Source: Oxalobacteraceae bacterium (lineage in GTDB: Bacteria; Pseudomonadota; Gammaproteobacteria; Burkholderiales; Burkholderiaceae_D). From it: DNA of 64,000 nucleotides. The stretch spans positions 62,001 through 126,000 of the forward strand of contig JAJTGD010000013.1 of the NCBI GenBank assembly GCA_021299035.1, read 5' to 3'. A model generated the notes under the pieces. It saw only the letters and a program-made list of their open reading frames with translations. It did not search any database and had not been told where the DNA came from. Both the position numbers and the translations under genes were made by a program. Shown in pieces: positions 30,965-58,525 of this stretch. The stretch's first letter is position 1, and each line of letters starts with the position of its first letter.

Positions 30965-30979
30965 ATACTTTAGTATAAT
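30965..30979 (+). promoter_or_regulatory. T6SS-island operator 1 overlapping a TATAAT -10 box
   Basis: ATACTTTAGTAT (30965-30976), an inverted repeat ATACT-TT-AGTAT, overlaps TATAAT (30974-30979). The ATG of the next gene is at 30987, so the transcript may be leaderless. The same element recurs at 35947 and 36659. Confidence 0.6.
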
Positions 30980-30986
30980 CCGCCGC

Positions 30987-31880
30987 ATGTCCCCCCTGGT
31001 ACCTGCAGCGGACAGGGAGCAACTCTCTCGGGTCCGGGCGTCATTGACGCAGGATGGCCTTGACTTGGCCATGATCGGTCACGACCGTCTGCAACTGCTG
31101 GCCTACGCCGCCGCCATCGCCACCGGGCTGGCAGATCAAGGCGATTGGCAGGTCCAAAAGTATGACCCGACGCAACTTGAGACCCTACTCGCCGATTTGA
31201 CGCTGGCGCGCTTCGACAGTGCACTGCATAGGCTATCTGAGCAAGCATCCGACCAGCGCGGCCGGCCACTGCACAACTGTGTGCTGTTTATCCCCGATGC
31301 GCAAAACCTCCCGCCGACACAGCTGCGTCAGCTATTGCGCCTGCTGCATGGCACCGGTCATCGTCGTCTGCGTATCGTCGCGTTGTTTAGTGGCAGTGCC
31401 CTCGCTTGCGAAGCGCAAGTAGCCGAACTGGGTAAACGAGTAGCACGCTGGTATCTGGATGAAGCGCCTAGCCATCTACCTGATCACGCCATGCAGAGCA
31501 CCATGCCTCATCAGGCAGAACGTTCTCTGCGGCAGAGATCGCCGCGCTCTCGTCAGCAGAAACCCGTACGGGCCGGCTTTACGCTTGCTGCAAGCCTCAT
31601 GCTGGCGCTTTTGTTCGGACCTACACTTTGGCCCGGCAACGATGAGGTCGCACGTCTATTCACGCAAACACTTTCGTTATCACCCGCGAATACAAGCCCA
31701 ACTTCAGCCACAAGTACGCTGGCTGGTGTGCCGGTATTCCTGGCACCAGAAAAGAAAGCGTTAGACGTCGAGCGCATTGAAACTACCGGTGCAGCCGACA
31801 TCCTCGACAAAGCCGAGACAGCCACCGACACGCTCAACAAAGCCGAAGCACCTGTTACCGACAGCGGAGCATCCAACTGA
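30987..31880 (+). CDS. Degenerate ATPase-like single-TM protein of the T6SS island
   Basis: A 297-residue protein. Residues 1-150 look like a P-loop (GspA/DamX-type) domain that has lost its Walker A: AMIGHDRLQLLAYAAAIATGL lies where GxxGxGKT would be, and the Walker B-like strand is NCVLFIPDAQNLPPTQLRQLLRLL. A basic stretch (RQRSPRSRQQKPVR) precedes one TM (about 193-212), then an Ala/Thr-rich periplasmic tail. The domain reading is inference from pattern. It is the first gene of the operon led by operator 1, and its stop overlaps the next start (TGATG). Confidence 0.7.
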   Translation: MSPLVPAADREQLSRVRASLTQDGLDLAMIGHDRLQLLAYAAAIATGLADQGDWQVQKYDPTQLETLLADLTLARFDSALHRLSEQASDQRGRPLHNCVLFIPDAQNLPPTQLRQLLRLLHGTGHRRLRIVALFSGSALACEAQVAELGKRVARWYLDEAPSHLPDHAMQSTMPHQAERSLRQRSPRSRQQKPVRAGFTLAASLMLALLFGPTLWPGNDEVARLFTQTLSLSPANTSPTSATSTLAGVPVFLAPEKKALDVERIETTGAADILDKAETATDTLNKAEAPVTDSGASN

Positions 31881-33289
31881 TGAACCTGTCGAGCGATCTG
31901 CTGCTGTTCTTCCTGCTCGCAAGCTTGGCGCTGATTGCCTTGGATGTAACACGTTACCCGATCGCACCGAGGCCGCAGGATTACGCAGTATGGGTGGCAG
32001 TATTTAGTGCGCTGGCACATCCGGTGGCGATAGTGGTCGCCGAACGTTTTGTATTGACAGGTGATTTGACCCCATTTTTGGCGTTCGACTTGATCGCTGC
32101 GGCGGCAATCGCTGTAGCAGCAGCCGGGCGCGTACCTAATGGCAAGATATTTTTTCCATTGGTTTTCCTGGTTGCGCTGACACTGGGCATCGGTGTACAG
32201 CAACTTCCCACACGCGGCTTGGGTGTTACCGGGCCACTGATGGCCGCCCTGCTCCTGTGTGCAGCATTTGCGGGGGCCGCCGCTGAGTGCAGCCGACACG
32301 CGCGCTTGCATATGATGTCGCAACGCGTCGTGATCATGCTTGCGCTGCTGTGTGGCGTCGGCGCGCTGCTGCAATTGATGATGGTACTGGTCGCTGTCGG
32401 TCTACCGCCCAACACGCCGGAGGTGGCAGATGCGCGCACACTCACGACAACGGCTGCCAGTCTGTGGCTTTTACTGAAGCTGCTGATTATCAGCTCTGTA
32501 CTCGCTCTGCGCAGCGCCAAGCACAGCGCATGGCTTGATCGGGTTGCGCGCCAACTGGTCGATAAAGCCAATGTCAGCACCAATGATCTGCTGGTGGTGT
32601 CACAGGCTTTTTATCAGTTGCCCGCCGCAATGCTGGTCACGGCGGATGACGGTCGCATCCTGTTCGCCAGCGCTCAAGCAAGGCGTCAGCTGTCTTACCC
32701 CGACACTACAGATCGTTTGCTGGAAGACCTATTCCTCGCAGCACAGCCGATCGGCCAACAACAAGTGCGCGCTCTGTTTGAACGGCCTGATCGTCAAGCC
32801 GAACTCGTACAAATCCGCATGACCAGCGTCGAATGCGGCGGACAGTCTTACCATCTGATGCAATTGGATAAGCTGCCCTTCGACTATGACATTCTGCGCA
32901 GCCTGCTAGTGGATACCCACAATGATGCGCCCCACGAAGCTAGCGGTCTGCTGGATCATCATTTTGCGATTGCGGCGATGGCCGATGGTTGGTTCCGCCT
33001 GCTCGACCCGATCGACCGCTATGCTGGCGCTGGCATGTTCTGGGACAAGCTACGACTGCTGTCGGACAACGACAGCGAAATTTCGCATCTGGAAAACGGT
33101 ATCGCGACTGCTAACGAAGCGCATGGCTGGTTGTTATTGCGGCGTGGTGGCGGGCTATCGGTGTCACTCAGAAAAATGAAAACGCCTGATTACAAACTGT
33201 TCTACCGCGTGCAGATGACGCTGGTAGACGATTTATCGCGCGCTAATGTGGATGCGCCCTACGCGGCTAGCCGTGAGGCGAGGCTATGA
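31880..33289 (+). CDS. Polytopic membrane sensor with a PAS-like domain
   Basis: A 469-residue protein. The first about 220 residues hold six or seven TM helices (LLLFFLLASLALIALDV through AASLWLLLKLLIISSVLAL). Then a PAS-like domain follows (ANVSTNDLLVVSQAFYQLPAAMLVTADDGRILFASAQAR). The remaining about 200 residues carry no kinase, cyclase or HTH motif. It therefore senses a signal but must pass it on through partners. It is coupled by overlaps to both neighbours (TGATG upstream, ATGA downstream). Confidence 0.75.
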   Translation: MNLSSDLLLFFLLASLALIALDVTRYPIAPRPQDYAVWVAVFSALAHPVAIVVAERFVLTGDLTPFLAFDLIAAAAIAVAAAGRVPNGKIFFPLVFLVALTLGIGVQQLPTRGLGVTGPLMAALLLCAAFAGAAAECSRHARLHMMSQRVVIMLALLCGVGALLQLMMVLVAVGLPPNTPEVADARTLTTTAASLWLLLKLLIISSVLALRSAKHSAWLDRVARQLVDKANVSTNDLLVVSQAFYQLPAAMLVTADDGRILFASAQARRQLSYPDTTDRLLEDLFLAAQPIGQQQVRALFERPDRQAELVQIRMTSVECGGQSYHLMQLDKLPFDYDILRSLLVDTHNDAPHEASGLLDHHFAIAAMADGWFRLLDPIDRYAGAGMFWDKLRLLSDNDSEISHLENGIATANEAHGWLLLRRGGGLSVSLRKMKTPDYKLFYRVQMTLVDDLSRANVDAPYAASREARL

Positions 33290-33768
33290 ATCGTTTCCGG
33301 CACGAGCCACAGTTGCAAACTACCGTACTCGGCAAAATGATCGAGCGGGTACGACGCGAGCATCACCTAAGTACCGTAACGCTCGCCATGCTGTCCGGCT
33401 TGAGTGATGCACAAATTCGTGCGATTGAAGAAGGCGCCTCGCATACCTTCGTCGATGAATCGCATCGTGTTGATTGCGCGCGTCGAATCGCGATTGCAAT
33501 GGGTCTACCCGAGACCTATTTTTTGCAAACAGATAACGCACCTGCCGAGCAGCGCGTGACCCCGATCGAGGCAGCGCCAGTGGACGGGATTAGTCGGGCT
33601 ATGTGGGGCCATTTACCAGTTGCCGAACTCAAAGTACTGGCATCGGTGCGCACCACGGAGGCGCTACCTGAGCTACAGCAACGTCGTAGCGGGTCGCCCA
33701 TGCTGATTGCATTGATCCTTGCGCTGCTGCTGGCAGGATTGATTCTGGGATTGAGCTTACTGCGCTAG
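33286..33768 (+). CDS. HTH protein with C-terminal TM anchor
   Basis: A 160-residue protein. Residues 15-80 form an XRE-like helix-turn-helix (LGKMIERVRREHHLSTVTLAMLSGLSDAQIRAIEEG). A linker follows, and a single C-terminal TM (PMLIALILALLLAGLILGLSLL, about 138-159) makes it tail-anchored. The layout recalls RodZ without its periplasmic domain, or a membrane-tethered regulator. It overlaps the PAS gene (ATGA) and lies directly before the LuxR regulator. It is a candidate binder of the ATACT-NN-AGTAT sites. Confidence 0.78.
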   Translation: MNRFRHEPQLQTTVLGKMIERVRREHHLSTVTLAMLSGLSDAQIRAIEEGASHTFVDESHRVDCARRIAIAMGLPETYFLQTDNAPAEQRVTPIEAAPVDGISRAMWGHLPVAELKVLASVRTTEALPELQQRRSGSPMLIALILALLLAGLILGLSLLR

Positions 33769-33790
33769 ATTGTCATTTACAATCGCGTCC

Positions 33791-34447
33791 ATGCATGCTT
33801 CCCCCTCCCTGCTGATTATTGATGATCACCCCATCATTCGGGTTGCGCTAGCCGATGCATTGCGCAAACGTTTTCCGCGCCTGCGGCTAGAGACCGTCGG
33901 CGATGCAGAATCCGGCATCGCCTTACTCAAGCAAGAAGTCAAGAAACGCAAAGCGCAGCCTTGGTTGGTGCTGATTGATCTCGGCCTTCCCGGCATTAGC
34001 GGACTCGCCGCGATCACGCAGCTACTCGCGCTGAGTGAATCGGCACAAGTGATCGCGATCTCGGGCAATGATGATGCGCTGCAAGTCGGCGCATGCCTGG
34101 GCGCTGGCGCCGCTGCCTTTATCAGTAAAGCAGCGCCTACGGATGATGCCATCACCATCGTTGCGCAGGCGGTGGAAGGCACGCTGCTCAAAGGCACCTG
34201 GTTGTCAGCGCGTGGCTTGGCAGATAGCTCGGCACTCACCCGAATCGCACTCACCGAGCGACAGGTGCAGGTACTGTCGATGATCTGCCAAGGCATGAGC
34301 AATCGCGAGATTGCCGATCAACTCGGTATCACCGAGATCACCGCAAAATCGCATGTCGGCGGTATCTTCCGCGAACTGCATGTGGCCAGTCGTACCCAAG
34401 CCGTCCTGGTGGCCCAAAAGCTCGGCCTGTTCGTGAACAACCATTAA
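33791..34447 (+). CDS. NarL/LuxR-family response regulator
   Basis: A protein of about 218 residues. The receiver has the acidic pair in LLIIDDHPIIRVAL, the phospho-acceptor Asp in VLIDLGLPG, and Lys in FISKAAP. The C-terminal LuxR HTH reads LTERQVQVLSMICQGMSNREIADQLGITEITAKSHVGGIF. I prefer the ATG at 33791 over a TTG at 33770; neither has a strong SD. It is convergent with a hybrid kinase gene, its likely partner. It may control the T6SS promoters. Confidence 0.9.
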   Translation: MHASPSLLIIDDHPIIRVALADALRKRFPRLRLETVGDAESGIALLKQEVKKRKAQPWLVLIDLGLPGISGLAAITQLLALSESAQVIAISGNDDALQVGACLGAGAAAFISKAAPTDDAITIVAQAVEGTLLKGTWLSARGLADSSALTRIALTERQVQVLSMICQGMSNREIADQLGITEITAKSHVGGIFRELHVASRTQAVLVAQKLGLFVNNH

Positions 34448-34512: not shown

Positions 34513-35880
34513 TTATTCTGGCTCAGTAAAGAGAGTGGCATTAATCGCTGCGCGTAGCTTTTCAGTACTAAACGGACGCTGCAGCAAAGTCACTCGCGAA
34601 CCTACTTGTCTCTGCAGGTCGCTAAACGGTGATTCATCGCTACACAACAGCACCGGTAGGTTGCTGTTGAATTCATCATTCATACGCGTAATGACTTGAG
34701 CGACTGGCTCGGACTGCATTTGCGCATCCACCATCAGCAAACTAGGTATGCCGCCCTGTATGGCCAGTTGTCGTATGGCGTCATCGCTACTGCCCGCTAC
34801 GACGACTGAGATGCCAATACCCGGGGCTAGCAGGCGAAGTGCATTACCCACATCCGGGTCCGCATCGATGCACACCATCAAGGTATTCTCGGGTGGTTCG
34901 AGTAACACCTGCGGCAACAAGCGCTCAATCAAGTAAGTCTCAGCGAGCGCCACCTGTTCGCTGCCGGTAATCGCTTCGGTTACCAATGGCAGATCAATCG
35001 CAAATACCGAGCCGATACCCACATGACTACTGAGTGAGATACGGGCACCAATACGGGCGGCAAGTCGACGTGCAATCGCCAGACCCAGCCCCACACCCTG
35101 TGTCGTCATCGCAGCATGATCGCCACGCGTGAATTCGTCGAAGATTTTTTTACGTAGCCCAGCAGCAATACCAGCGCCCGTATCAATCACTGCGATACGA
35201 CAGCGCTCTCCCCGTCGTGAGATCCGTATGCGAACCCCACCCCGCTGGGTATACCGCATCGAGTTGCTGATGAAGTTACGCAGAATGCGCTCGAGCAGTC
35301 GAGGATCAGTTTGCAAGAAAAGCACTTCATGATCGGGAGCGCGCAGAGTCAACGTAAGACCCAAATCCTCTGCCATACGACGATGCTGCGCCACTATACG
35401 TTCGCAGAATTCGCGGCCATCGATTCGTTCAATGGATACTTCTAACGCACCACTATCAAGCCGGCTGACATCGAGCATGCTGTCGAACACATCATTCATA
35501 TAGCCCATGCTTTGCCTGAGACGCAGTAGGCTTTCGGTGGCGCGTGATCGCTCGGCAGTATCAAGTGAGGCATGCGCAAGACTGCGCTCGACGCTACCCA
35601 AGTAGAGATTAATGGCCTGCATCGGCTGCTTCAGGTCATGACTGAAGGCGGCCAGAAAGCGAGACCGATCGACCTCGGTATCGCGCAGCGCCAGCCGACG
35701 CTCAGCCAGCTCTTGCAGCATGTCGTCGATACGGCGTCGACGGCGCTGCTCACGTACCTGCCGAATCAGCAACCAAACCGCGAGCGCGATCAGGAGCAAG
35801 CCGATCAGCAGTACGGCCAGTGCGAGCGTCATCGTGGGAAGTAGCGCCGCCAGATCAGCCACGCGAGACCTCCTGCGCAC
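34513..35880 (-). CDS. Hybrid sensor histidine kinase with degenerate receiver
   Basis: A 455-residue protein. One N-terminal TM (about 17-38) leads into HisKA with His in FLAAFSHDLKQPMQA, HATPase with NFISNSMRYT, DTGAGI and GVGLGLAIA. A C-terminal receiver (about 330-450) keeps Asp in LMVDAQM, but the conserved Lys before Pro is Arg (LLQRPF). This suggests weak or altered receiver activity. The H-box SHDLKQPMQA is of the type seen in kinases paired with LuxR regulators. Its start at 35880 is divergent from the 35994 gene across operator 2. Confidence 0.88.
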   Translation of the reverse strand: MRRRSRVADLAALLPTMTLALAVLLIGLLLIALAVWLLIRQVREQRRRRRIDDMLQELAERRLALRDTEVDRSRFLAAFSHDLKQPMQAINLYLGSVERSLAHASLDTAERSRATESLLRLRQSMGYMNDVFDSMLDVSRLDSGALEVSIERIDGREFCERIVAQHRRMAEDLGLTLTLRAPDHEVLFLQTDPRLLERILRNFISNSMRYTQRGGVRIRISRRGERCRIAVIDTGAGIAAGLRKKIFDEFTRGDHAAMTTQGVGLGLAIARRLAARIGARISLSSHVGIGSVFAIDLPLVTEAITGSEQVALAETYLIERLLPQVLLEPPENTLMVCIDADPDVGNALRLLAPGIGISVVVAGSSDDAIRQLAIQGGIPSLLMVDAQMQSEPVAQVITRMNDEFNSNLPVLLCSDESPFSDLQRQVGSRVTLLQRPFSTEKLRAAINATLFTEPE

Positions 35881-35946: not shown

Positions 35947-35958
35947 ATACTTTAGTGT
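35947..35958 (+). promoter_or_regulatory. T6SS-island operator 2
   Basis: ATACTTTAGTGT (35947-35958), preceded by TATTAT (35943-35948). It matches operator 1 at 11 of 12 positions. It lies in the short divergent gap between the hybrid kinase gene and the first gene of the structural T6SS run. Confidence 0.55.
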
Positions 35959-35993
35959 GAGTGCTAGTCGTAGCCAAAGGAGCAATCAAGCCG

Positions 35994-36650: not shown

Positions 36651-36679
36651 TTGCACCAATACTAAAGTATGGTTAGTAT
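36651..36679 (+). promoter_or_regulatory. tssB promoter with T6SS-island operator 3 in its spacer
   Basis: TTGCAC (36651-36656), 17-nt spacer, TAGTAT (36674-36679). ATACTAAAGTAT (36659-36670) fills the spacer, and a further TTAGTAT at 36673 forms ATACTAA-N7-TTAGTAT. This is the clearest of the three sites. Confidence 0.65.
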
Positions 36680-36739: not shown

Positions 36740-37318
36740 ATGGCTGAGAGTCTGCAAAAATGGGTTGGGCGCAACCGCCCGCCCCGCGTACAGATCACCT
36801 ACGACGTCGAGATCGGTGATGCCATCGAAAAGCGTGAGTTGCCGCTGGTGGTAGGCGTCCTTGCCGATCTGGCGGGCAAGCCTGCGAGCGCGCCACCCAA
36901 AATGAAAGACCGGCGCTTCGTCGAAATCGATCGCGATAACTTCGACGAGATCATGGCCAAGATCGGTCCGCGACTCGATATGAGCGTACCGGACATGATG
37001 AAAGGTAGCGGCAACCTGAAGATCGAGCTCACGCCGAAGAAGTTTGCCGACTTCCATCCTGAGGCGATTGTTGATCAGGTACCGCGCCTGAAGAAATTAC
37101 TGGAAGCACGACTTGAGCTGCGCGATCTGCTGGCCAAACTGGACGGCAATGATGATCTCGACGGTCTGCTAGCAGGAATCGTAAAGAACACCGAAGGCCT
37201 GAAACAAATTCGTAGCGCTGCTGGTGGCGGCGCGAGCAGCGCAAACGACAAGCCCGCTGCGAAGAAAGAAGACGACAAGCCTGAGGCGAAGTCTGACGAC
37301 GCACCAAGCGCTGAATAA
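36740..37318 (+). CDS. tssB: T6SS contractile sheath small subunit TssB (VipA/IglA)
   Basis: A 192-residue sheath protein. Typical features are the VGRNRPPRVQITYDVEIGDA start, KRELPLVVGVLADLAG, and DRRFVEIDRDNFDEIMAKIGPRL. The C-terminal FHPEAIVDQVPRLKKLLEARLELRDLL helix pairs with TssC. The Lys/Asp/Ala-rich tail is somewhat long. GGAGG precedes the ATG. It is first in the structural operon, directly under operator 3. Confidence 0.96.
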   Translation: MAESLQKWVGRNRPPRVQITYDVEIGDAIEKRELPLVVGVLADLAGKPASAPPKMKDRRFVEIDRDNFDEIMAKIGPRLDMSVPDMMKGSGNLKIELTPKKFADFHPEAIVDQVPRLKKLLEARLELRDLLAKLDGNDDLDGLLAGIVKNTEGLKQIRSAAGGGASSANDKPAAKKEDDKPEAKSDDAPSAE

Positions 37319-37371
37319 CCAATAACGATCGCAGGTAATCCTCCGCATCCTGACCGAGACGAGTGACCGAC

Positions 37372-38856
37372 ATGGCAGATACTAAATCCTCCTCCTCTGG
37401 CGCTGGCGCTTCTGGCACCGGCAGCCTCCTGGACCAGATCGTCCTGAACGGCAAAATGGCCAACGAGCCTTCGCAAGAGCCGTACGCGAAGCGAATGCTG
37501 AGCCAGTTCGCCTCGCAGATTCTCGACGAAGACATGAAGTTCAGCCCTGACAAGGGCGTGGTCACGATGATCAACGAGCGTATCGCAGAGATCGATGATC
37601 TGCTGACCAAGCAGCTGAATGCCATCATGCATCACCCGGAGTTTCAGGCGCTGGAAGGCGCGTGGCACGGTCTGCACGATTTTGTGTTCGGTAGCGAGAC
37701 CAGTACCCGTCTGAAAATTCGCCTGATGAGCGTCAGCAAGCAAGAACTGCTGAATGATCTCGAAACCGCGGTCGACTATGACACCAGCGCACTGTTCAAG
37801 AAAGTGTACGAAGAAGAGTACGGCACCTTTGGTGGCTATCCCTATTCGGTACTGATCGGCGACTACTACTTTGGTCGCCATCCGCAAGATATGGCGCTGC
37901 TGGAGCGTGTTTCTAAAGTAGCAGCGGCGGCTCATGCGCCTTTCATCTCGGCGGCTTCACCTGCCTTGTTCGACATGAAGCGCTTCACCGAACTCGGTGG
38001 CCCGCGTGATCTGTCAAAGATTTTTGAGAGCGCAGAGCTAGCGACTTGGAAAGCCTTCCGCGAAGGTGAAGATTCGCGCTATGTCGCGCTGACCTTGCCA
38101 CGCTATCTGGCACGACTGCCCTACGGCAACAAGACGAAACCTGTCGAGCAGTTCGGGTTTGAAGAAGACGTAGACGGTAAAGACCACGACAAGTATCTGT
38201 GGTCGAACAGCGCCTATCAGTTAGGTTTGCGGATTACCGATGCGTTTGCCAAGTTCGGCTGGACCACTGCGATTCGTGGTGTTGAGGGCGGCGGTAAAGT
38301 TGAAGGCATGACCGCGCACACTTACCAAACTGACGAAGGTGATATCGCACTGAAATGCCCAACCGAGGTGCTGATCACTGACCGTCGTGAAAAAGAACTT
38401 AATGACCTCGGTTTCATTGGCGTCGTTAACGCTAAAGGAGCGACTTACGCTGCTTTCTTCGGCGGGCAAACGGTCAACAAACCCAAGGTCTATAACAAAG
38501 ATTTGGCAAATGCGAATGCCAACCTTTCGGCACGCCTACCTTACATGTTGGCAGCCTCGCGCTTTGCGCACTACGTAAAGGTCATCGCACGTGACAAAGT
38601 CGGTAGCTTCCAGACCCGCGACACCTTGCAAAGTTATTTGAACACCTGGATCGCGGACTATGTTTGCCTGAGCGAGTCCGCACCACAAGAGACCAAGGCG
38701 CGCCTACCATTGGCCAGCGCCCGCGTTGACGTGAGCGAGATTCCGGGGCGTCCTGGTGCTTACTCGGCGGTAGTGTTTGTACGGCCGCATTTCCAGATGG
38801 AAGAGTTGACTGCCTCGATCCGCATGGTGGCGGAATTGCCCGCGCCAGCAGCCTGA
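37372..38856 (+). CDS. tssC: T6SS contractile sheath large subunit TssC (VipB/IglB)
   Basis: A protein of about 494 residues. Conserved stretches are FQALEGAWHGLHDFVFGSETS, LKIRLMSVSKQELLNDLE, GTFGGYPYSVLIGDYYFG, FISAASPALF and the C-terminal RPHFQMEELTASIRMVAELP. It forms the sheath with TssB. A GTG three codons upstream (37363) is possible; I chose the ATG for its spacing from GAG. Usual length. Confidence 0.96.
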   Translation: MADTKSSSSGAGASGTGSLLDQIVLNGKMANEPSQEPYAKRMLSQFASQILDEDMKFSPDKGVVTMINERIAEIDDLLTKQLNAIMHHPEFQALEGAWHGLHDFVFGSETSTRLKIRLMSVSKQELLNDLETAVDYDTSALFKKVYEEEYGTFGGYPYSVLIGDYYFGRHPQDMALLERVSKVAAAAHAPFISAASPALFDMKRFTELGGPRDLSKIFESAELATWKAFREGEDSRYVALTLPRYLARLPYGNKTKPVEQFGFEEDVDGKDHDKYLWSNSAYQLGLRITDAFAKFGWTTAIRGVEGGGKVEGMTAHTYQTDEGDIALKCPTEVLITDRREKELNDLGFIGVVNAKGATYAAFFGGQTVNKPKVYNKDLANANANLSARLPYMLAASRFAHYVKVIARDKVGSFQTRDTLQSYLNTWIADYVCLSESAPQETKARLPLASARVDVSEIPGRPGAYSAVVFVRPHFQMEELTASIRMVAELPAPAA

Positions 38857-38918
38857 TCGTCAGCGCACTACCCACGCCGACCCACCATGATCGCGAACTA
38901 TTCTTAGGATAAAACACC

Positions 38919-39440
38919 ATGGATAACTGCAATATTCTGCTCCAGATCGACGGTGTCAAAGGCAGCAGCACCTTGGCCGACTATGCCGACCAAATCGAGT
39001 GCTACTCCTGGACATTCAACGTCGTGCAGCCCAGCAGTAATACCAAGTCAGGTACCGAGCGTACAGCGGCGAACCCGATGTTCTCCGACATTACGCTCAC
39101 CAAGGAGACTGATGTTTCTTCGACCGACTTACTTCGTCTATGTGCGACTGCGAAAGAAGTCGATAAGGTCACCCTGACAATGCTGCGCAAGGCGAATGAA
39201 GAAAACGCGCCACTGCTAAAGGTTGAGTTAGAGAAGGTGATCATTAGTCACTACACTATCGCCAGCGCGCATGAGCCACATCCACTTGAAACCGGTGTTG
39301 ATGGCGCGCGCCGCCCGCTAGAAACCATTTCGCTGAACTTCGTGAAAATCAAGATGGAGTACAACCATCAGGCTAACGACGGCAGCATCGCAGGCAAGAC
39401 CGATTTCGGCTACGACCTGGCGATCAACAAAAAAGCTTGA
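38919..39440 (+). CDS. hcp: T6SS inner tube protein Hcp (TssD)
   Basis: A 173-residue Hcp. Features are ILLQIDGVKGSSTLADYADQIE near the N-terminus, ITLTKETDVSSTDLLRLCATAKEVDKVTL, and the C-terminal PLETISLNFVKIKMEYNHQ. It stacks as hexameric rings inside the sheath and is secreted. AGGA lies 9 nt before the ATG. Its place between tssC and tssE is normal. Confidence 0.96.
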   Translation: MDNCNILLQIDGVKGSSTLADYADQIECYSWTFNVVQPSSNTKSGTERTAANPMFSDITLTKETDVSSTDLLRLCATAKEVDKVTLTMLRKANEENAPLLKVELEKVIISHYTIASAHEPHPLETGVDGARRPLETISLNFVKIKMEYNHQANDGSIAGKTDFGYDLAINKKA

Positions 39441-39482
39441 TCCCTTGTTACCGGCGATCCGCCACGATAGAGGTGAAGCTCG

Positions 39483-39965
39483 ATGTCATTCCTGTTCCCG
39501 GGTGGGCCCATCCCGCTGTTCGACAAGCTCGACCAGCGCGCTGCGCCGACCGGGCTTGAAGCTGGTCAGGGGCTTTCTGCCGATGGCGTCGAGGCCTCAG
39601 TTGAGCGCGAGCTGCATCGCTTACTGAACTCGCGCTCTCGAATCAATCTGTCCGAGTTCACTGAAGCAAATCTCACCGTCTGCGATTACGGCATTCCGGA
39701 CTACACCACCCTGTCAGTTCGCAGCGATACCGATCGAGTTCAGATCGCCACTGCAATCGCCTATGCGATTCAGCATTTTGAGCCGCGACTTGTCAACGCC
39801 ACAGTGACACCGCTCGGTGCTGCCAACGGTATAACGATCGCACTATTTCAAATTGATGCCGATCTACCGATTGCGAATACCGTACGTCGCGTGCGTTTCA
39901 CGCTGGCTGGCGAAACGCCACCCATTGCCCACACCGCTTCGAACACAGCGGAGGTTCTCGCATGA
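39483..39965 (+). CDS. tssE: T6SS baseplate protein TssE (gp25-like)
   Basis: A 160-residue gp25-like baseplate protein. It begins FLFPGGPIPLFDKLDQ and has LHRLLNSRSRINLSEF, VCDYGIPDYTTLSVRSDTDRVQIATAIAYAIQHFEPRL and a beta-rich end. It connects the baseplate wedge to the sheath. The stop overlaps the tssF start (ATGA, 39962-39965). Confidence 0.95.
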   Translation: MSFLFPGGPIPLFDKLDQRAAPTGLEAGQGLSADGVEASVERELHRLLNSRSRINLSEFTEANLTVCDYGIPDYTTLSVRSDTDRVQIATAIAYAIQHFEPRLVNATVTPLGAANGITIALFQIDADLPIANTVRRVRFTLAGETPPIAHTASNTAEVLA

Positions 39966-41725
39966 ATTCACGCGCGGGTGATAACGAACTGCTGGACTAC
40001 TACCTGCGCGAGCTGGATTGGTTGCGTACGCAAGGGCGCGACTTCGCGCGGCGTTACCCCAAAATCGGCGCACGTCTAGATCTGCACGGTGGCGAGTCAC
40101 ATGATCCCCATACCGAACGACTGATTGAATCCGTTGCATTTCTGGCGGCGCGGGTACGACGCGATATCGACTCAGATTTTCCGCAAGTCGCCAGCGCACT
40201 ACTGGAAAACCTCTACCCTTCGCTATTAGCACCACTGCCATCCATGACGGTGGTGCAGATGTCGCTCGGCGCAGCGCAAGGCAAGGTTACTGCCGGGCTA
40301 GGTGTGCCGCGTCACACAGCCTTAGTCACTTACGCTGATAGCGGCGAAGAAGTGCGCTTTCGTACCGCATGGGATAGCACACTATGGCCGCTGCATATCG
40401 CTGACGTAAAAGTCGATGATGAGGGCTATATCGCTCTGGTGATCAAGGCGGACGACGGCACCTCACTCGATGAGTTAGAACTCGATACCCTGCGCATTCA
40501 TCTCGCCGGTGATGCGGCTACCGTAGCGACGCTATATGAATGTATGGCGGTGCGCTTGAAGGGTATGTATGTCGCGAACGCATCTGGAACGACGATCGCA
40601 CGCTTGGCCCCCAAGCAGTGTCAGCGCATTGGTTTTGATACTGAACATGCGGTGCTACCGCAAGCGCCGGGTGCTCATCCGGCGTATGGCTTGCTGCAAG
40701 AGTATTTTGCATTTCCAGCGAAGTTCCATTTCTTCGATATTCACGGCTTTCGTGCCCTCAAGCTCAGCGGTCAGCAATTCAGCTTAAAACTAGATGTCGG
40801 TGCCGCATCCCGAAAGCTGCGCGCGCTGAATGCGGATAACTTCCGTCTTGGCTGCACGGTAGCAGTCAATCTATTCCCGCGCACCTCGGAGCCTATTCAG
40901 ATCGATCACACCCAGCATGAGGTAATGCTGGTAGGTGACCGCGCGCGTGAAGCCTCGACCGAGATTCATTCGATCCAGCAGGTCACCGCTTCTGAGCCTG
41001 GCTCGGATCAACCCATGCAGCTACGCCATATCGCTGCCATGCAAAGTGGCGAAGCCATTGATGATGTGTTCTGGGTCGCACGACGCGAGCGTAGTCTGCG
41101 CGATGACATTACCGGTACCGATTTATACCTGTCGTTTGTCGATCGACGGCAAGAGCGGCGTGCGCCCTCTGCCGTTGTGTACGCTAACACCTTATGCACC
41201 AACCGCGGCTTGGCGGAGCAGATCACACCGCAAACTCTGCTAATCGGCGAAGGTGTCTCGAATGGATTGCAGATCTGCTGTGTGAGCGAACCCTCGCGCC
41301 AGCGGATGCCGCCGATCGGTAGCGATACCTTGTGGCGGCTGATATCGCTGCTCAATCTGCAGCATCAGTCCTTGATTAACGCTGATCAAGGTCGTGATCA
41401 CCTGCGTGAATTGCTCTCTCTGTTTAGCTCAGAGCAGCAGCGCGACCTGGAGCAGATTCGCGGCATTCAACGCCTCAGCGCACGTGCAGTAACGCGGCAG
41501 ATCGGTCACGAGGCTTGGCGTGGTGTCTGCCGTGGCACAGGCGTGCGGCTTGAGATTGATCCGGATGCATTTGTCGGTAGCTCGTCGGTGTTGTTCTCTG
41601 CCGTGTTAGCGCATTTCTTTGCGCTGTACACCACCGTGAATTCCTTCGTCGAACTGGGTATTTGGCGCGGTGATGAATGTCTGGTGCAATGGCCGCCAAT
41701 GAGTGGCTCACAGGAGTTGCTCTAA
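39962..41725 (+). CDS. tssF: T6SS baseplate protein TssF
   Basis: A 587-residue wedge protein. It begins ELLDYYLRELDWLRTQGRDFARRYPKIGARL, the standard TssF opening, followed by HDPHTERLIESVAFLAARV and SLLAPLPSMTVVQM. The C-terminal SVLFSAVLAHFFALYTTVNSF is also typical. It works with TssG and TssE. tssG starts on the base after its stop. Confidence 0.96.
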   Translation: MNSRAGDNELLDYYLRELDWLRTQGRDFARRYPKIGARLDLHGGESHDPHTERLIESVAFLAARVRRDIDSDFPQVASALLENLYPSLLAPLPSMTVVQMSLGAAQGKVTAGLGVPRHTALVTYADSGEEVRFRTAWDSTLWPLHIADVKVDDEGYIALVIKADDGTSLDELELDTLRIHLAGDAATVATLYECMAVRLKGMYVANASGTTIARLAPKQCQRIGFDTEHAVLPQAPGAHPAYGLLQEYFAFPAKFHFFDIHGFRALKLSGQQFSLKLDVGAASRKLRALNADNFRLGCTVAVNLFPRTSEPIQIDHTQHEVMLVGDRAREASTEIHSIQQVTASEPGSDQPMQLRHIAAMQSGEAIDDVFWVARRERSLRDDITGTDLYLSFVDRRQERRAPSAVVYANTLCTNRGLAEQITPQTLLIGEGVSNGLQICCVSEPSRQRMPPIGSDTLWRLISLLNLQHQSLINADQGRDHLRELLSLFSSEQQRDLEQIRGIQRLSARAVTRQIGHEAWRGVCRGTGVRLEIDPDAFVGSSSVLFSAVLAHFFALYTTVNSFVELGIWRGDECLVQWPPMSGSQELL

Positions 41726-42757
41726 ATGAGCGCGCGTGACGCTGACATGCAGTTGATCCCTGCCCTGCTCGAGCAGCCGCAGGGCTTTGATCTATTCCAA
41801 GCCATCAGCCTGCTTGAGCGCGCCGGTATGGCCGATGGCCACGCGGCACTCGGCACCGACCACGGTACCGAAGCAGTTCGGCTATCTAGTCATATCTCGC
41901 TCGACTTTGACGCCAGTGATGTCCGCGATGCACGCCGCGGTGCTGTCACTGGCGAGCCATATACGCTAAGCACACCGGTACTTTCCTTGTTAGGTCAAGC
42001 AGGGCCGATGCCCTCAGCGTTTACCGAGATGGTGATCGCGCGTAATGCGGTCAGGGATTTTGCAACAGCCGAGTTTTTGGATATTTTCCATCACCGTTTG
42101 CTGTCCTTGTTCTACCTTGGTCGTAAACGTCACCGCCCTTCGGTCGGTGGCGATGCCAATACAGCCAGCATCGGTAGCGCGACGCGACGCTTATGCGGAA
42201 GCACTGAACAAGTACCGCGTGATGCAGGTCGATGGCTACGTCACGCTGGTTTACTTGCGGGTGCGCCGCGCTCAATTGCTTCGCTGTGTACCTTGCTGGC
42301 CGATCGTTTCCAGATTAGTTTTCGAAGTGAGCAATTTGTCGGCCGCTGGTTGCCGCTCGAGTCGGATGATCTCACCCTGCTAGGCGATAAAAACTGTGCG
42401 CCTGCACTGGGTCAAAACGCGCTGCTGGGCCGACAAGCCTGGGATCAGTCGGCAGCGATTCGGCTGTACGCCCATGATCTACCGCTGCCACGTGTGATGC
42501 AGCTGCTACCGGGTGGTGAGCAGCATGAAGTATTCAAAGCCACGGTGCGCGACTTCATGCCATCGGCACTCAGCGTTGAGGTCTGGCTGACACCGGCTGC
42601 GGAGACCGTCACCGCAGCATCCTTCAGCACAACGGGCCGCCCACGTCTAGGTTGGAATGCCTGGGTAGCAGAGCGCAGTGCGCGCGATACAGCAGCTTCT
42701 ACTGAAACACCGCCGCCGGCGCGTTTCTCATTTGACTGTGCGCATCATGAGCACTGA
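41726..42757 (+). CDS. tssG: T6SS baseplate protein TssG
   Basis: A 343-residue protein. Family features are EQPQGFDLFQAISLLERAG, EAVRLSSHISLDFDASDV, VLSLLGQAGPMPSAFTEMV and the FLDIFHHRLLSLFYLGRKRHRP motif. It pairs with TssF in the wedge. Its 3' end overlaps the tssH start by 11 bp. Confidence 0.95.
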   Translation: MSARDADMQLIPALLEQPQGFDLFQAISLLERAGMADGHAALGTDHGTEAVRLSSHISLDFDASDVRDARRGAVTGEPYTLSTPVLSLLGQAGPMPSAFTEMVIARNAVRDFATAEFLDIFHHRLLSLFYLGRKRHRPSVGGDANTASIGSATRRLCGSTEQVPRDAGRWLRHAGLLAGAPRSIASLCTLLADRFQISFRSEQFVGRWLPLESDDLTLLGDKNCAPALGQNALLGRQAWDQSAAIRLYAHDLPLPRVMQLLPGGEQHEVFKATVRDFMPSALSVEVWLTPAAETVTAASFSTTGRPRLGWNAWVAERSARDTAASTETPPPARFSFDCAHHEH

Positions 42758-45110
42758 ACTGCGCACCCTGATACAGCGGCTGGATGATGAAAGCCGCGCC
42801 GCTATGGAACGCGCAGCTGAGTTATGCGCGCAGCAGACGCATTTCAGTGTCGACCCCGAGCATCTATTCATAGAGCTACTGCACGATAAAGATAGCTCGC
42901 TGCAGCGGCTACTCAGCCATTTTCAAGTGTCTGGCGCACGCGCGCAGTCGCAGCTACAAGATACCCTCGATCAACTTAAACGTGGCAACGGACGTACCCC
43001 CATACTGTCCGAGCATCTGCCGCGTTTACTTGAAAATGCTTGGGTGATCGCTTCGGTACAACTGGGCGAGAGTCATATCGATGCTGCTTGTTTACTGCTC
43101 GCAGCGTTGGAATCCGACACCCTGCGTGGCATGCTGCTGGAATCTGCACCCAGCCTGCTAGACCTACCGCGCGAGAGCCTGCGCCAGCAGTTACGTAGTC
43201 TGTCGGGCTTAGGATCTACCGTGGGCGCGACGGCATCGAAGACGCTCACTTCGTCCGCACAGGGCGAACGTCAAAAGACACCGGCACTCGATCAGTACAC
43301 GCTGGATCTGACTGAACAAGCAAAACAAGGCCAGCTCGACCCTGTGATCGGACGTGACCAGGAAATCAATCAGCTGATCGAGACCCTGCTACGTCGCCGC
43401 CAGAACAACCCCATCCTGACCGGTGAAGCCGGTGTCGGTAAAACCGCCGTTGTGGAAGGTTTTGCGCAACGGGTAGTGAATGACACGGTACCAGCGCCGT
43501 TAAAAGATATTTCAGTGCGAGCACTTGATCTTGGCTTGCTCCAAGCCGGTGCCGGCATGCGCGGCGAGTTCGAGCGCCGTCTCAAAGACGTCATCCTCGA
43601 GGTGAAAGCTGCATTACCGCCCGTTGTATTGTTCATTGATGAAGCCCATCAGCTGATTGGTGCCGGCGGTAGCGAAGGCGTGGGTGATGCTGCCAACCTG
43701 CTCAAGCCTGCGCTGGCAAGAGGTGAATTGCGTACCATCGCAGCGACGACTTGGTCTGAGTACAAACAGTATATCGAGCGTGACCCAGCATTAACGCGCC
43801 GCTTTCAAGTGGTGAAAGTTGTCGAGCCCAGCACAGATACCGCTATCGCGATGCTGGCATCAATTGTGTCGCGGTTAGAAACGCATCACGGTGTCACTAT
43901 CACCGAGGGTGCGGTAAAGGATGCAGTGAATTTATCCCACCGCTATCTACGTGCACGGCAGCTGCCGGACAAAGCGATCAGCCTGTTGGATACAGCCTGT
44001 GCGCGTGTCGCGCACAGCGTTTCCGACGGCGCAGCGAATAAGGCGAGCAGCACTCACCAACAGAACACCGATAAAACTCAAGCCTGCGTCGACACTGAAG
44101 CGGTAGCCAACGTGCTGTCGAGCTGGACCGGTATACCGCTCGGTCGTATGCTGGCCGATGAGCAGCGTATGGTGCTGGAGCTGCACAAGCGTCTGCAGGA
44201 AAGAATCATCGGGCAGGATGAAGCGCTAGAGGTGATCGCACGTCGCATCCGTAGCCATCGCGCCGGACTGGATGATGAAGCAAAACCGGTCGGTGTTTTT
44301 CTACTGGTGGGCCCGAGCGGTGTCGGCAAGACCGAGACTGCGAATCAGCTTGCCGAGCTGCTGTATGGCAGCCGCGAGCACATGGTCACCATTAATCTGT
44401 CTGAGTATCAGGAGCCACATTCGGTGGCTGGCTTGAAGGGCGCGCCACCGGGCTATGTGGGCTATGGTCGCGGCGGTGTGCTAACCGAAGCGATCCGGCG
44501 TCAGCCCTACAGCCTGTTGCTACTCGATGAGATGGAAAAAGCGCATCCGGATGTGCTCGAACTGTTTTATCAAGTGTTCGACAAGGGCACGATGGAAGAT
44601 GCCGAAGGCACCTCTATCGACTTCCGTAACACCTTGATCCTGTTGACCTCAAATGCAGCACAAGAAGTGGTGGTTGACGTCTGCCAGCAGCAAGTCCATG
44701 CCAGCCTGGAGCAAATCAACGCTGCGCTGCGCCCTGCACTACTGCGCCAGTTCCCGGCGGCGTTTTTAGGTCGTCTGATCATCGTCCCCTACCGCCCTAT
44801 CGCGGATACCGAGCTACTGCGTATCACCGGGCTGAAGCTGGATCAATTGGCAGAGCGCATACAGCGTAATCACGCTGCGCACTTGCAGTGGGACGCTACC
44901 GTTGCCGATGCGATCGTTGCACGTTGCCATGAAGTCGAGAGTGGCGCGCGAAATATCGACCACATCATTACGCAGTCCTTGCTACCTGAACTCGCCGCCG
45001 AAGTACTAGCGAAGATTGCAGCCTCTGAGCATTTCAATCAGGTCACACTCGGCGTCGATCAGCACACTGGATTTCGTGTCAGTCTGAATCAAGTTGGGGA
45101 GCCCGCATGA
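42747..45110 (+). CDS. tssH: T6SS sheath-recycling AAA+ ATPase TssH (ClpV)
   Basis: A 787-residue ClpB-type unfoldase. Domains are the N-domain (1-150, HFSVDPEHLFIELL), AAA1 with Walker A GEAGVGKT (226-233) and Walker B VVLFIDEAH, and AAA2 with Walker A GPSGVGKT (522-529) and Walker B LLLLDEMEKAHP. ClpV disassembles contracted sheath. The ATG at 42747 is chosen because the N-domain begins there; an earlier ATG at 42678 adds residues that lie in the tssG frame overlap. Confidence 0.95.
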   Translation: MSTELRTLIQRLDDESRAAMERAAELCAQQTHFSVDPEHLFIELLHDKDSSLQRLLSHFQVSGARAQSQLQDTLDQLKRGNGRTPILSEHLPRLLENAWVIASVQLGESHIDAACLLLAALESDTLRGMLLESAPSLLDLPRESLRQQLRSLSGLGSTVGATASKTLTSSAQGERQKTPALDQYTLDLTEQAKQGQLDPVIGRDQEINQLIETLLRRRQNNPILTGEAGVGKTAVVEGFAQRVVNDTVPAPLKDISVRALDLGLLQAGAGMRGEFERRLKDVILEVKAALPPVVLFIDEAHQLIGAGGSEGVGDAANLLKPALARGELRTIAATTWSEYKQYIERDPALTRRFQVVKVVEPSTDTAIAMLASIVSRLETHHGVTITEGAVKDAVNLSHRYLRARQLPDKAISLLDTACARVAHSVSDGAANKASSTHQQNTDKTQACVDTEAVANVLSSWTGIPLGRMLADEQRMVLELHKRLQERIIGQDEALEVIARRIRSHRAGLDDEAKPVGVFLLVGPSGVGKTETANQLAELLYGSREHMVTINLSEYQEPHSVAGLKGAPPGYVGYGRGGVLTEAIRRQPYSLLLLDEMEKAHPDVLELFYQVFDKGTMEDAEGTSIDFRNTLILLTSNAAQEVVVDVCQQQVHASLEQINAALRPALLRQFPAAFLGRLIIVPYRPIADTELLRITGLKLDQLAERIQRNHAAHLQWDATVADAIVARCHEVESGARNIDHIITQSLLPELAAEVLAKIAASEHFNQVTLGVDQHTGFRVSLNQVGEPA

Positions 45111-47134
45111 GACAGGACTTTACCCAACAGCACGTACGCATCGCCATCACGACCGTGTTAGGCAAAGACAAGCTACTACTGGAGAGTTTTGCTGGCACCG
45201 AGGCCTTGTCGCGACCCTTTGCATTTGCGTTGACGATGAGATCATCGGAAGTTGCGCTCGACCCTGATGCCCTCATCGGCACGCTGGCCACAGTGAAGGT
45301 GATTCACGGCGACGGTATGACTCGCTACTTCCATGGCTTGATCAGCGGCTTTACGCAAGCGGGTATCGATGCGGAATTTGCCTGGTACAGCGCCGATATG
45401 GTGCCCTCGCTGTGGCTACTTTCGCTTTCGCGTGATCGTCGCATCTACCAGAACCAAAGTACGGTGCAGATTGTTGAATCGGTGCTGCAGTCGTTCGGCA
45501 TTAAGTTTAATAATCGCTTGAAATCCAGCTATGCGCCGCGTGAATACTGCGTACAGTATGACGAGACACCGCTGGATTTCATCATGCGGCTGATGGCGCA
45601 AGAAGGTATTTTTTACTTCTTCCAGTTCGCAGACGGTAGCCACACCATGGTGCTGGGCGATGACCCATCTGCGCACAGTGATTGCGCCAACAGCCAATTA
45701 ATCTACCGTGGGCGTGCTGATACCCGTGGTTGGCCCGACACTGTCTTGCGCTTCGAGGCGGGTGGTCGCTTAGTCACGCGCGACTATAACGGACGCGATT
45801 ATGACTACTTGAAGCCCAGTACCTCGCTGGCTGCAGAAGCCGCCGGCAAAGCCGGTCGCGGCAAGTTCTACGAATACCCCCATCTGCACAATACGGTGAG
45901 CGCGGGTAAGCAGCAGCAAACTGTCCATGTACAAGGTAGCCAGGCAGAGGCGTCGAGTGCTGCCGGTGAAAGCTTATGTAATAGCCTGTATGCCGGTGGT
46001 GTCTTCAAACTCGATAAGCACCCTAACGCACGACTCAATACGCGTTATGTCCTGCGCAGCGTGACCCACCGTGCGGATATCACTGGCTATACCAATCACT
46101 TTGAGTCTTTCCCTTCGACACTCGCGTTTCGGCCAACTCGTAGCGTGCCGCAGCCTGTGGTCGCGGGTAGCCACTCGGCCTTCGTGGTGGGCCCGGATGG
46201 TGAAGAGATCTGGACCGATGTGCACGGGCGCGTGAAAGTGAAATTTCACTGGGATCAGAGCGCTGCGCATGACGATAAAGCCTCGTGCTGGGTACGTGTG
46301 TCCCAGGCCTGGGCTGGTAATGGCTGGGGCGCGCTGTTTATCCCGCGGATCGGGCAGGAAGTGATCATCAGCTACCTCGATGGCAATCCTGATCGGCCGT
46401 TGATCACCGGTAGCGTCTACAACGGTGAGCAAGCAACGCCCGTCAACCTGCCGAGCAAGCAAATGCAGTCGGGATTTCGTTCACGTCCGACCAAGAGCGG
46501 CAATGGTCGCTCTAAATCGGCTGAAATTGCTGATGGTCGTATCCATGGTAATGAGCTGCGCTTCGACGACAAGATGGGCGATGAAGAACTCTATCTCCAC
46601 GCAGAGCATGACATGAAGGTCGATATTGAACACGACCTCGATACCACGCTATACAAAGGATCGGAACAACACCTGATCAAGAAAGGCAATCGCAGCATCG
46701 ATGTCACGATCGGTAACGAAACCCATACCGTCGGTGGCAAGCGCGACCTAACAGTCCATGGTGACGAAACCCATAGCGACAGCGCGAACTTCAAGCACAC
46801 CGTCAAGAAGAACTACACGCTGGAGGTAGATGGCGATCTTTCCGAGACCATCAAAGGCAATACCACCTTGAAAATCACTGGCAATTTGGTGATTGATGTC
46901 GGCGGCAGCATTACCTTCAAGTCGGGGAAAAATACCGATGTCACTGCCGGCACTGCGATCAATATGAAAGCGGGTACTGAGTTGAGTAGTAAGGCCGGTA
47001 CCAGCTATGCGATCAAGGCGGGCACCGAACTGAAGATGGATGCACTGACGCTGGCCGCCAAGGCATCGGCCTCAGGCCAGATTGATGGTGGCGGCATGCT
47101 GACCATCAAAGGCGGCATGGTGAAAATCAATTGA
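45107..47134 (+). CDS. vgrG: T6SS spike protein TssI (VgrG)
   Basis: A 675-residue VgrG. The gp27-like part (1-380) has LLESFAGTEALSRPFAF, FDETPLDFIMRLMAQEGIFYFF-type sequence and a gp5 OB fold with WVRVSQAWAGNGWGALFIPRIGQEV. A long needle of repeats follows (VTIGNETHTVGGKRDLTVHGDE). It ends GGMLTIKGGMVKIN without an added effector domain, so toxins must bind as separate cargo. The start overlaps tssH by 4 bp. Confidence 0.95.
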   Translation: MRQDFTQQHVRIAITTVLGKDKLLLESFAGTEALSRPFAFALTMRSSEVALDPDALIGTLATVKVIHGDGMTRYFHGLISGFTQAGIDAEFAWYSADMVPSLWLLSLSRDRRIYQNQSTVQIVESVLQSFGIKFNNRLKSSYAPREYCVQYDETPLDFIMRLMAQEGIFYFFQFADGSHTMVLGDDPSAHSDCANSQLIYRGRADTRGWPDTVLRFEAGGRLVTRDYNGRDYDYLKPSTSLAAEAAGKAGRGKFYEYPHLHNTVSAGKQQQTVHVQGSQAEASSAAGESLCNSLYAGGVFKLDKHPNARLNTRYVLRSVTHRADITGYTNHFESFPSTLAFRPTRSVPQPVVAGSHSAFVVGPDGEEIWTDVHGRVKVKFHWDQSAAHDDKASCWVRVSQAWAGNGWGALFIPRIGQEVIISYLDGNPDRPLITGSVYNGEQATPVNLPSKQMQSGFRSRPTKSGNGRSKSAEIADGRIHGNELRFDDKMGDEELYLHAEHDMKVDIEHDLDTTLYKGSEQHLIKKGNRSIDVTIGNETHTVGGKRDLTVHGDETHSDSANFKHTVKKNYTLEVDGDLSETIKGNTTLKITGNLVIDVGGSITFKSGKNTDVTAGTAINMKAGTELSSKAGTSYAIKAGTELKMDALTLAAKASASGQIDGGGMLTIKGGMVKIN

Positions 47135-47136
47135 GC

Positions 47137-47772: not shown

Positions 47773-48155
47773 GTAATCTTGTGTGCTCAGGTGCGATGCT
47801 GAAGTGTCCATTCGGCGCAGCGCCGTCTACGCTCAACGTGCTGCCCGCGAACCGTGTGCTGTCGGGTGCGCCCTCGGCCAACATCATGGACCACGTGCCT
47901 ATGTTGAACATACCGCCGTTCGGTATGTGTAACTCCTTAGCCAACCCGATGGTCGCTGCGGCGACTGCGGCGGCACTGGGTGCACTGACCCCCATGCCCT
48001 GCATACCGGCCACCAGCGCGCCGTGGGCGCCGGGCTCGCCCACAGTGCAAATCGCCAACATGCCGGCACTGAACGATAGCTCAACACTCGCGTGCAATTG
48101 GGGCGGTGTGATTCAGGTGTCGATGGCAGGACAATTCACGGTGACAGTGGCATGA
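47769..48155 (+). CDS. DUF4280 PAAR-like spike-tip protein
   Basis: A 128-residue protein. DUF4280 features are LVCSGAMLKCPFGAAPSTL, PANRVLSGAPSANIMDH, PPFGMCNSLANPMVAAATAA and the Cys pair around MPCIPATSAPWAPG. It is predicted to cap the VgrG spike in the manner of PAAR proteins. There is no C-terminal toxin extension. It overlaps both neighbours by 4 bp. Confidence 0.88.
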   Translation: MSNLVCSGAMLKCPFGAAPSTLNVLPANRVLSGAPSANIMDHVPMLNIPPFGMCNSLANPMVAAATAAALGALTPMPCIPATSAPWAPGSPTVQIANMPALNDSSTLACNWGGVIQVSMAGQFTVTVA

Positions 48156-48981: not shown

Positions 48982-49016
48982 ATGTGCCCACAATCACATC
49001 GGTACGGAGGTCGGCG

Positions 49017-50339: not shown

Positions 50340-50362
50340 GGCGCTTCGCGCTACATACCGTC

Positions 50363-58464: not shown

Positions 58465-58525
58465 TGCAATCTCCACCGGGCCATCTCAACGCGGTCGAGG
58501 GTAGCAAGAAAAAACAGCAATTCGG

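What the first reader, a model, noticed from the sequence alone, without database searches (positions are those of the whole stretch)
30987..34447. Membrane-signalling module of unrecognised type heading the T6SS island
Four coupled genes encode a degenerate P-loop-like single-TM protein, a six- or seven-TM PAS protein with no output domain, a tail-anchored HTH protein and a LuxR regulator, facing a hybrid kinase. None is a known T6SS regulator (no Fha, PpkA, PppA or TagF). The PAS protein lacks a transmitter, so it probably acts with the HTH-TM or the degenerate ATPase in the membrane. This could be an undescribed route for gating T6SS.
Basis: inference. Interest (0 to 1): 0.7.

Follow-up and report, generated by a model that had tools for sequence, protein, structure and literature searches.

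The report
Private control island for a weapon
Some uncultured bacteria carry, beside the genes of their protein-injecting weapon, a dedicated sensor-and-switch set (a common type of two-part switch plus three unusual membrane proteins) with one 12-letter DNA signal in front of its three gene groups; the switch is ordinary in kind, but the set and its signal appear undescribed and are easy to test.

Summary
The genes are as described: pseudo-AAA+ single-TM protein (P1), 7-TM protein with a weak PAS match (P2), HTH tail-anchored protein (P3), REC+LuxR response regulator (P4), facing a hybrid kinase (HK). They are T6SS-linked: in two clades (21 and 26 genomes) all 21 genomes with tssB carry P2; 4 of 25 P2 carriers lack tssB, each on a contig that ends between P2 and tssB. 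A P2 profile gave only marginal matches in 80 other T6SS genomes. The window's genome holds three copies (pattern ATACTTWAGTRT), these three. Operators persist where P3 has lost its HTH, so P4 is the likely reader. Best reading: a T6SS-dedicated two-component system whose kinase lacks a recognisable sensor and takes its input from P2, with P1 and P3 as adaptors. DNA binding by P4, the sign of control and the roles of P1-P3 are inferred. New variant of a known kind.

The parts
30965..30976 (.). operator 1, ATACTTTAGTAT, 10 nt before the P1 start codon and running into TATAAT
30987..31880 (+). P1: cytoplasmic pseudo-AAA+ domain, one TM, periplasmic or outer tail (topology inferred)
31880..33289 (+). 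P2: 7 hydrophobic segments, PAS-like region about 243-313, conserved C-terminal part, no transmitter
33286..33768 (+). P3: Xre-like HTH and C-terminal TM anchor; HTH lost in the f17 genus g60
33770..34447 (+). P4: response regulator, REC plus LuxR/GerE HTH (ATG start probably 33791)
34513..35880 (-). HK: one N-terminal TM, HisKA, HATPase, weak REC, no recognisable sensor domain
35947..35958 (.). operator 2, ATACTTTAGTGT, between HK and P6
35961..36620 (+). P6: soluble protein of no known family, always between HK and tssB (start probably 35994)
36659..36670 (.). operator 3, ATACTTTAGTAT (minus-strand reading), 69 nt before tssB
36740..56353 (+). T6SS cluster tssB, C, D, E, F, G, H, I, a 213-aa ORF, a lipoprotein-like ORF at the tssJ place, tssK, L, M, A

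Best explanation
A T6SS-dedicated two-component system with extra membrane input. Shown by sequence: P4 and HK are a response regulator and a histidine kinase; the unit goes with one T6SS lineage; one palindrome marks its three promoters. Inferred: P4 reads ATACTTTAGTAT and so controls its own operon, HK, P6 and the tss cluster together. Inferred: HK, which here has one TM and no recognisable sensor domain, receives its signal from P2 (7 TM and a PAS-like part, no transmitter) in the inner membrane, with P1 (AAA+ fold without its ATP motif) and P3 (tail-anchored, HTH dispensable) as adaptors. The operator overlaps the likely core promoter, which suits a repressor, but the weak promoter elements would also suit activation; the sign is undecided.
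For: Co-occurrence: 9 of 9 tssB-positive genomes of the genus (of 21) and 12 of 12 in family f17 (of 26) carry P2. Gene order kept at 21-27% P2 identity. Module-bearing T6SSs form one clade of 13 in a 92-row TssC tree, SH-aLRT 99. Operator: 3 sites in the window against 0.11 expected, the same 3 the only ones in the genome, 68 of 68 promoters in 25 genomes, including 8 genomes fetched after the motif was fixed. Operators intact in f17 g60 where P3 has no HTH: reduced to about 67-90 residues in 5 loci, no Pfam match in L037. P4's recognition region EITAK is invariant in 7 of 7. The same palindrome stands beside P4-like regulators and kinases in two genomes without tssB. HK has one N-terminal TM and P2 no output domain.
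Against: No experiment, no direct link between P2 and HK. In f17 genus g164 HK has 5 TM segments of its own and P2 is still kept, so P2 is not simply a split-off sensor. The PAS match is weak and the P2 model failed. The loss of the P3 HTH is probably one event in one clade. P1 is not recognised in most of g60. In L006 two other genes stand between P3 and P4, so P4 need not be co-transcribed with P1-P3. Genomes are related and mostly MAGs, so counts are not independent events.
Confidence: 0.62

Rival explanations
1. P3, as a membrane-tethered regulator, reads the palindrome (in the manner of ToxR/CadC-type proteins; comparison recalled).
For: P3 has an HTH and a TM anchor in the genus and in g164; a 12-bp palindrome suits an Xre dimer (recalled).
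Against: In g60 the HTH is gone in 5 reduced P3 genes and unmatched in L037 while the operators stay; the P4-like regulators of G504 and G518 stand beside the same palindrome without P2, and no P3 was noted there.
Confidence: 0.13
2. P1, P2 and P3 act on the T6SS machine itself (assembly or firing), and only P4/HK deal with transcription.
For: All three are membrane proteins locked to the T6SS; no Fha-type post-translational control was found; P3 can lose its HTH but keeps its anchor.
Against: They share an operon and operator with P4; no homology to T6SS parts found by Pfam or NCBIfam; the 80 other T6SS loci do without them.
Confidence: 0.15
3. The palindrome is only a symmetric -10 promoter element and no protein of the module reads it.
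For: It runs into TATAAT or TATACT before P1 and holds TATACT before P6.
Against: The whole 12 bp is kept, with single changes at most, while flanks diverge; it occurs at no other place of the window's genome; before tssB in g164 two copies stand exactly 23 bp apart in 7 of 7 loci.
Confidence: 0.07

Closest known systems
VirAG two-component system in the Burkholderia T6SS-5 cluster (PMC6335564, passages seen)
   Same: A kinase and a response regulator encoded between tss genes, next to tssB, needed for transcription of that T6SS.
   Different: No P1, P2, P3 or P6 named there; VirA itself senses thiols. Sequence homology with HK/P4 was not tested.
Rcs phosphorelay acting on T6SS promoters through RcsB (PMC10482370, passages seen)
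   Same: NarL-family regulator (family of RcsB: PMC5829831, passages) that binds a T6SS promoter, with several membrane proteins upstream of the kinase.
   Different: Rcs is a global system; here the genes and operator are dedicated to one T6SS and the membrane proteins are unrelated as far as named.
AtsR/AtsT of Burkholderia (PMC10482370, passage seen)
   Same: A two-component system of the order's wider kin that controls a T6SS, there as a repressor.
   Different: No comparison of sequence or of neighbouring genes was made.
NarL and its 7-2-7 sites (PMC4549865, passages seen)
   Same: Same regulator family; inverted repeat beginning TAC and ending GTA; repression of frdA from a site near the transcription start.
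   Different: Here 12 bp (ATACT-TT-AGTAT), not 16 bp; binding not shown.
NahK/ErcS-type hybrid kinases (NCBIfam NF041832)
   Same: Best NCBIfam match of HK, E 1.3e-67 over residues 70-448.
   Different: 228 bits against a cut-off of 400; not a member by that test.

Membership tests
NarL/FixJ-family response regulators (P4) | REC domain with phospho-acceptor Asp and a C-terminal LuxR/GerE HTH | tested here: met
   Pfam REC 59 bits (cut-off 30.2), GerE 62.8 bits (23.5); Asp (position 63 of A8) and Lys (113) invariant in 7 of 7
NarL/FixJ-family response regulators (P4) | binds an inverted repeat as a dimer | not testable with these tools
   a palindrome is present at three promoters; binding needs an experiment
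hybrid histidine kinases (HK) | HisKA with His, HATPase, receiver | tested here: met
   HisKA 35 and HATPase 86 bits over cut-off; REC 24.7 bits, below its cut-off of 30.2; SHDLKQP present. REC is missing from the 346-aa kinase of G258 by motif
NahK/ErcS-family kinases | NCBIfam NF041832 cut-off | tested here: not met
   228.4 against 400 bits
AAA+ P-loop proteins (P1) | AAA+ fold | tested here: met
   predicted model only: Foldseek E 2.6e-5, VIA Z 11.8, rmsd 4.1, 146 aligned
AAA+ P-loop proteins (P1) | Walker A motif GxxxxGK[ST] | tested here: not met
   absent from 11 of 11 aligned sequences, of which L033 may be no homologue
PAS-domain proteins (P2) | Pfam PAS match over cut-off | tested here: inconclusive
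   16 bits against 22.6; weak in 9 of 14; model failed
Xre/Cro HTH (P3) | Pfam HTH match over cut-off | tested here: inconclusive
   window 21.3 against 30.2 bits; best homologue 28.2 against 30.2
Type VI secretion system (neighbouring cluster) | core set tssA-tssM | tested here: met
   tssB, C, E, F, G, H, I, K, A over NCBIfam cut-offs; D, L, M below cut-off; tssJ not named by any model
T6SS threonine-phosphorylation pathway (Fha, PpkA, PppA) | T6SS Fha protein, TIGR03354 | tested here: not met
   0 matches in the held genome, 94.9% complete
T6SS threonine-phosphorylation pathway (Fha, PpkA, PppA) | PpkA kinase and PppA phosphatase | not tested
   no search was made for them
VirAG-type T6SS-encoded two-component system | kinase and regulator genes beside tssB | tested here: met
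   gene positions here; VirAG positions from PMC6335564
VirAG-type T6SS-encoded two-component system | sequence homology of HK/P4 with VirA/VirG | not tested
   VirAG sequences were not obtained

The most novel reading that the evidence does not exclude
P1, P2, P3 and the kinase form one inner-membrane signalling complex: a two-component system whose sensing is spread over a 7-TM protein, a dead AAA+ protein and a tail-anchored HTH-fold adaptor that no longer needs DNA. The P4/HK/palindrome cassette is a portable control unit that has been attached to a T6SS in some lineages and to giant surface adhesins in others.
Probability: 0.3. Interest if true: 0.72.

Novelty: new variant of a known kind. 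Interest (0 to 1): 0.6.

Why it matters
It gives one T6SS lineage a private switch with a defined operator and a defined set of membrane partners, so that what tells the weapon to be made can be tested with purified parts. If P1-P3 feed the kinase, it is a new way of building a two-component sensor. The operator also predicts which other loci, such as adhesin clusters of T6SS-free relatives, share the control logic.

Tried and rejected
P2 structure: AlphaFold with 5 close homologues gave mean pLDDT 33.7, so a second PAS fold in the C-terminal part could not be shown; a profile comparison of the PAS part with the C-terminal part gave nothing (probability 0.1%). A PDB sequence search with the P2 profile gave only E 0.06-0.08 matches in the TM part. 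No P2 on plasmids. The sister T6SS loci L096, L098 and L132 were read by eye for a diverged module; none seen. The idea that P2 is just the split-off sensor of the kinase is weakened by g164, whose kinases have 5 TM segments. The sigma-70 scan found 0 promoters in 6.5 kb against 3.1 in shuffles. Activation from a site near -41 was considered for tssB but does not fit P1 (10 nt to the start codon) or P6 (35 nt). Paper searches: no title or abstract start in the listings describes the module; the only paper holding the string ATACTTTAGTAT concerns a human RNA. Subscription literature was not searchable.

Counting notes. L003, L004, L005 and L006 are the contigs of G505, G506, G511 and G510 (equal contig lengths) and are not counted twice. 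One search tested 80 of the 88 T6SS-positive, P2-negative genomes of the order sample (8 left out by the 80-handle limit); its 6 matches (E 5e-4 to 0.008) were 5 near the PAS part and 1 in the TM part with a stop. One search read 80 tssB loci of 78 genomes, not every T6SS locus, at HMM E<=0.01; one P4-like regulator turned up (L100). The tree is a quick one. In one search I set the tested intervals knowing where the sites lay; the loci were fetched after the motif was fixed. 17 of the 68 sites have one mismatch; in four g60 genomes (G464, G520, G523, G524) the head site lies about 1.4 kb before P2 and its link to the operon rests on the two ORFs between them in L038. Fisher P values ignore relatedness. 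The denominator of the background line wrongly includes four module loci, so I use (3 one-mismatch hits, none exact, in 1,275,609 bases). Controls (pattern read backwards): 9 hits in the 11 module genomes against 29 real sites, 10 hits in the 10 others against 4. In one search the control gave 1 hit in the 7 P2 carriers against 21; I did not total it for the other 392. Of the 29 loci scanned, the only non-module one with regulator and kinase matches near a site was L170 (G363).
Full report
What is there. The four genes and the facing kinase are real; P1/P2 and P2/P3 overlap. P1 has a predicted AAA+ fold of Cdc6/ORC/RFC type but no Walker A motif in 11 of 11 aligned sequences, then one TM segment. 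P2 has seven hydrophobic segments and a soluble half with a weak PAS match and no output domain. Among the window and its four closest relatives, 222 of 235 residues of the soluble half are invariant against 134 of 215 in the TM half. P3 is Xre-like with a C-terminal TM anchor. P4 is a full NarL-type response regulator; HK is a hybrid kinase with one N-terminal TM and no recognisable sensor domain. P6, of no known family, lies between HK and tssB. Downstream is a T6SS cluster with matches for tssB, C, D, E, F, G, H, I, K, L, M and A (D, L and M below the curated cut-offs) and a lipoprotein-like ORF at the tssJ place that no model names. No T6SS Fha protein is found in the held genome.

Where it occurs. 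P2 was found in four other MAGs whose titles say Betaproteobacteria, Burkholderiaceae and Oxalobacteraceae, with the same gene order, except for two genes between P3 and P4 in L006. In the window's genus 11 of 21 genomes have P2 and 9 of 21 have tssB; all 9 have P2. In the order sample 7 of 399 have P2 and 94 of 399 have tssB. The other six P2 carriers belong to one further family (f17), where 14 of 26 have P2 and 12 of 26 tssB; all 12 have P2, in G531 as a fragment at a contig end. The four P2 carriers without tssB (G505, G519, G464, G523) have contigs that end between P2 and tssB. The order P2-P4/HK/P6/tssB is kept in the f17 loci that span it, at P2 identities of 21-27% to the window. P1 is recognised in the genus and in f17 g164, not in most of g60. 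Among 80 other T6SS loci none gave a match to P1, P2, P3, HK or P6 and one to P4; a wider P2 profile gave 6 marginal matches in 80 T6SS genomes. The module-bearing T6SSs are one clade of 13 in a 92-row TssC tree. So the unit is neither widespread nor independent of T6SS; it belongs to one T6SS lineage, which probably moved as a whole between two families (inference).

The operator. The upstream regions share a palindrome, ATACTTTAGTAT, before P1, between HK and P6 (in the genus as ATACTTTAGTGT or a like form), and before tssB. The window holds 3 sites against 0.11 expected. In the whole held genome the pattern ATACTTWAGTRT occurs three times, at these places; in the 11 module genomes of the genus all 29 distinct sites lie at the module, while the 10 others hold 4 sites in 3 genomes, fewer than the backwards control gives there. 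Order-wide there are 60 exact sites in 35 of 399 genomes; the 7 P2 carriers hold 21 (16 at the module), the other 392 genomes 39. With the motif fixed I fetched contigs of eight more f17 genomes; each promoter that was assembled carried a site at up to one mismatch. In all, 24 of 24 operon heads, 23 of 23 HK/P6 gaps and 21 of 21 tssB upstream regions have one, 51 of the 68 exact. Within the genus the palindrome is conserved while flanks diverge: before tssB it stands between invariant CTTG and TTAGTATTG, before P1 it is the only conserved stretch and runs into TATAAT or TATACT (HK/P6). In g164 a ParA-like gene heads the operon and the site is in front of that gene; before tssB two sites stand 23 bp apart in 7 of 7 g164 loci, the weaker one with up to two mismatches.

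Which protein reads it. P3 and P4 are the module's HTH proteins. In f17 genus g60 P3 is reduced to a gene of about 67-90 codons with the TM but no HTH in L033, L038, L208, L209 and L215, and gives no Pfam match in L037, yet the operators are intact. This may be a single loss in one clade. P4 is present in the loci that span it, with EITAK in the recognition region invariant in 7 of 7. In two genomes of the genus without tssB and P2 the palindrome stands beside related parts: in G504 between a ParA-like gene and a P4-like regulator (41% identity), with a second site on a contig that carries a 5-TM hybrid kinase; in G518 65 bp before a 2322-aa two-partner-secretion adhesin that is followed by a 6-TM hybrid kinase and a P4-like regulator. 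P4 is therefore the best candidate. NarL, of the same family, reads inverted repeats and represses frdA from a site near the transcription start (PMC4549865, passages).

How it may work. HK lacks a recognisable sensor; P2 has sensor-like parts and no transmitter; both are tied to the same T6SS. I infer that P2 passes a membrane or periplasmic cue to HK, HK phosphorylates P4, and P4 sets transcription of its own operon, HK, P6 and the tss genes. P1 and P3 would be adaptors: P1 has lost its ATP motif, and P3 can lose its HTH but keeps its anchor. Against this, g164 kinases have 5 TM segments of their own, and nothing links P2 to HK directly. Whether P4 activates or represses cannot be told: the site overlaps the likely core promoter, which suits repression, while no consensus promoter was found, which suits activation.

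Comparison. A two-component pair encoded beside tssB and needed for T6SS transcription is known (VirAG; PMC6335564, passages); so is RcsB binding a T6SS promoter with several membrane partners upstream, and AtsR repressing a T6SS (PMC10482370, passages). The three membrane proteins, P6 and the private palindrome appear in no title or abstract start listed. I rate it a new variant of a known kind.

Noticed in passing
L167 (G518:C14) 5494-5505; L165 and L166 (G504:C215, C216): In T6SS-free relatives the same palindrome stands before a giant two-partner-secretion adhesin and between a ParA-like gene and a P4-like regulator, near multi-TM hybrid kinases: a possible sister cassette.
   Followed up: partly
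L034, L035, L036, L210, L211, L212, L214: In f17 genus g164 an extra ParA/MinD-like gene heads the P1-P4 operon, with the operator in front of it; a homologue (35-37% identity) stands beside the palindrome in G504.
   Followed up: partly
L168 (G047:C3:7623-7634): One palindrome copy in a genome without tssB and P2; no regulator or kinase was seen within 1.5 kb.
   Followed up: no
L170 (G363:C13:90756-90767): An exact palindrome in a family f31 genome lies within 1.5 kb of a NarL-type regulator and a kinase.
   Followed up: no
L006 10177-11678: A short-chain dehydrogenase-like gene and a TetR-like gene stand between P3 and P4 in this genome.
   Followed up: no
window 35961-36620: P6 has no family match but is among the most conserved proteins of the island (94-99% identity in four relatives) and always precedes tssB.
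   Followed up: no
L033 13850-14890: The kinase of G258 is only 346 aa and seems to have lost its receiver domain.
   Followed up: no
window 56359-58476: A 705-aa flagellin-like protein with a repetitive middle lies just after tssA on the other strand (read by eye).
   Followed up: no
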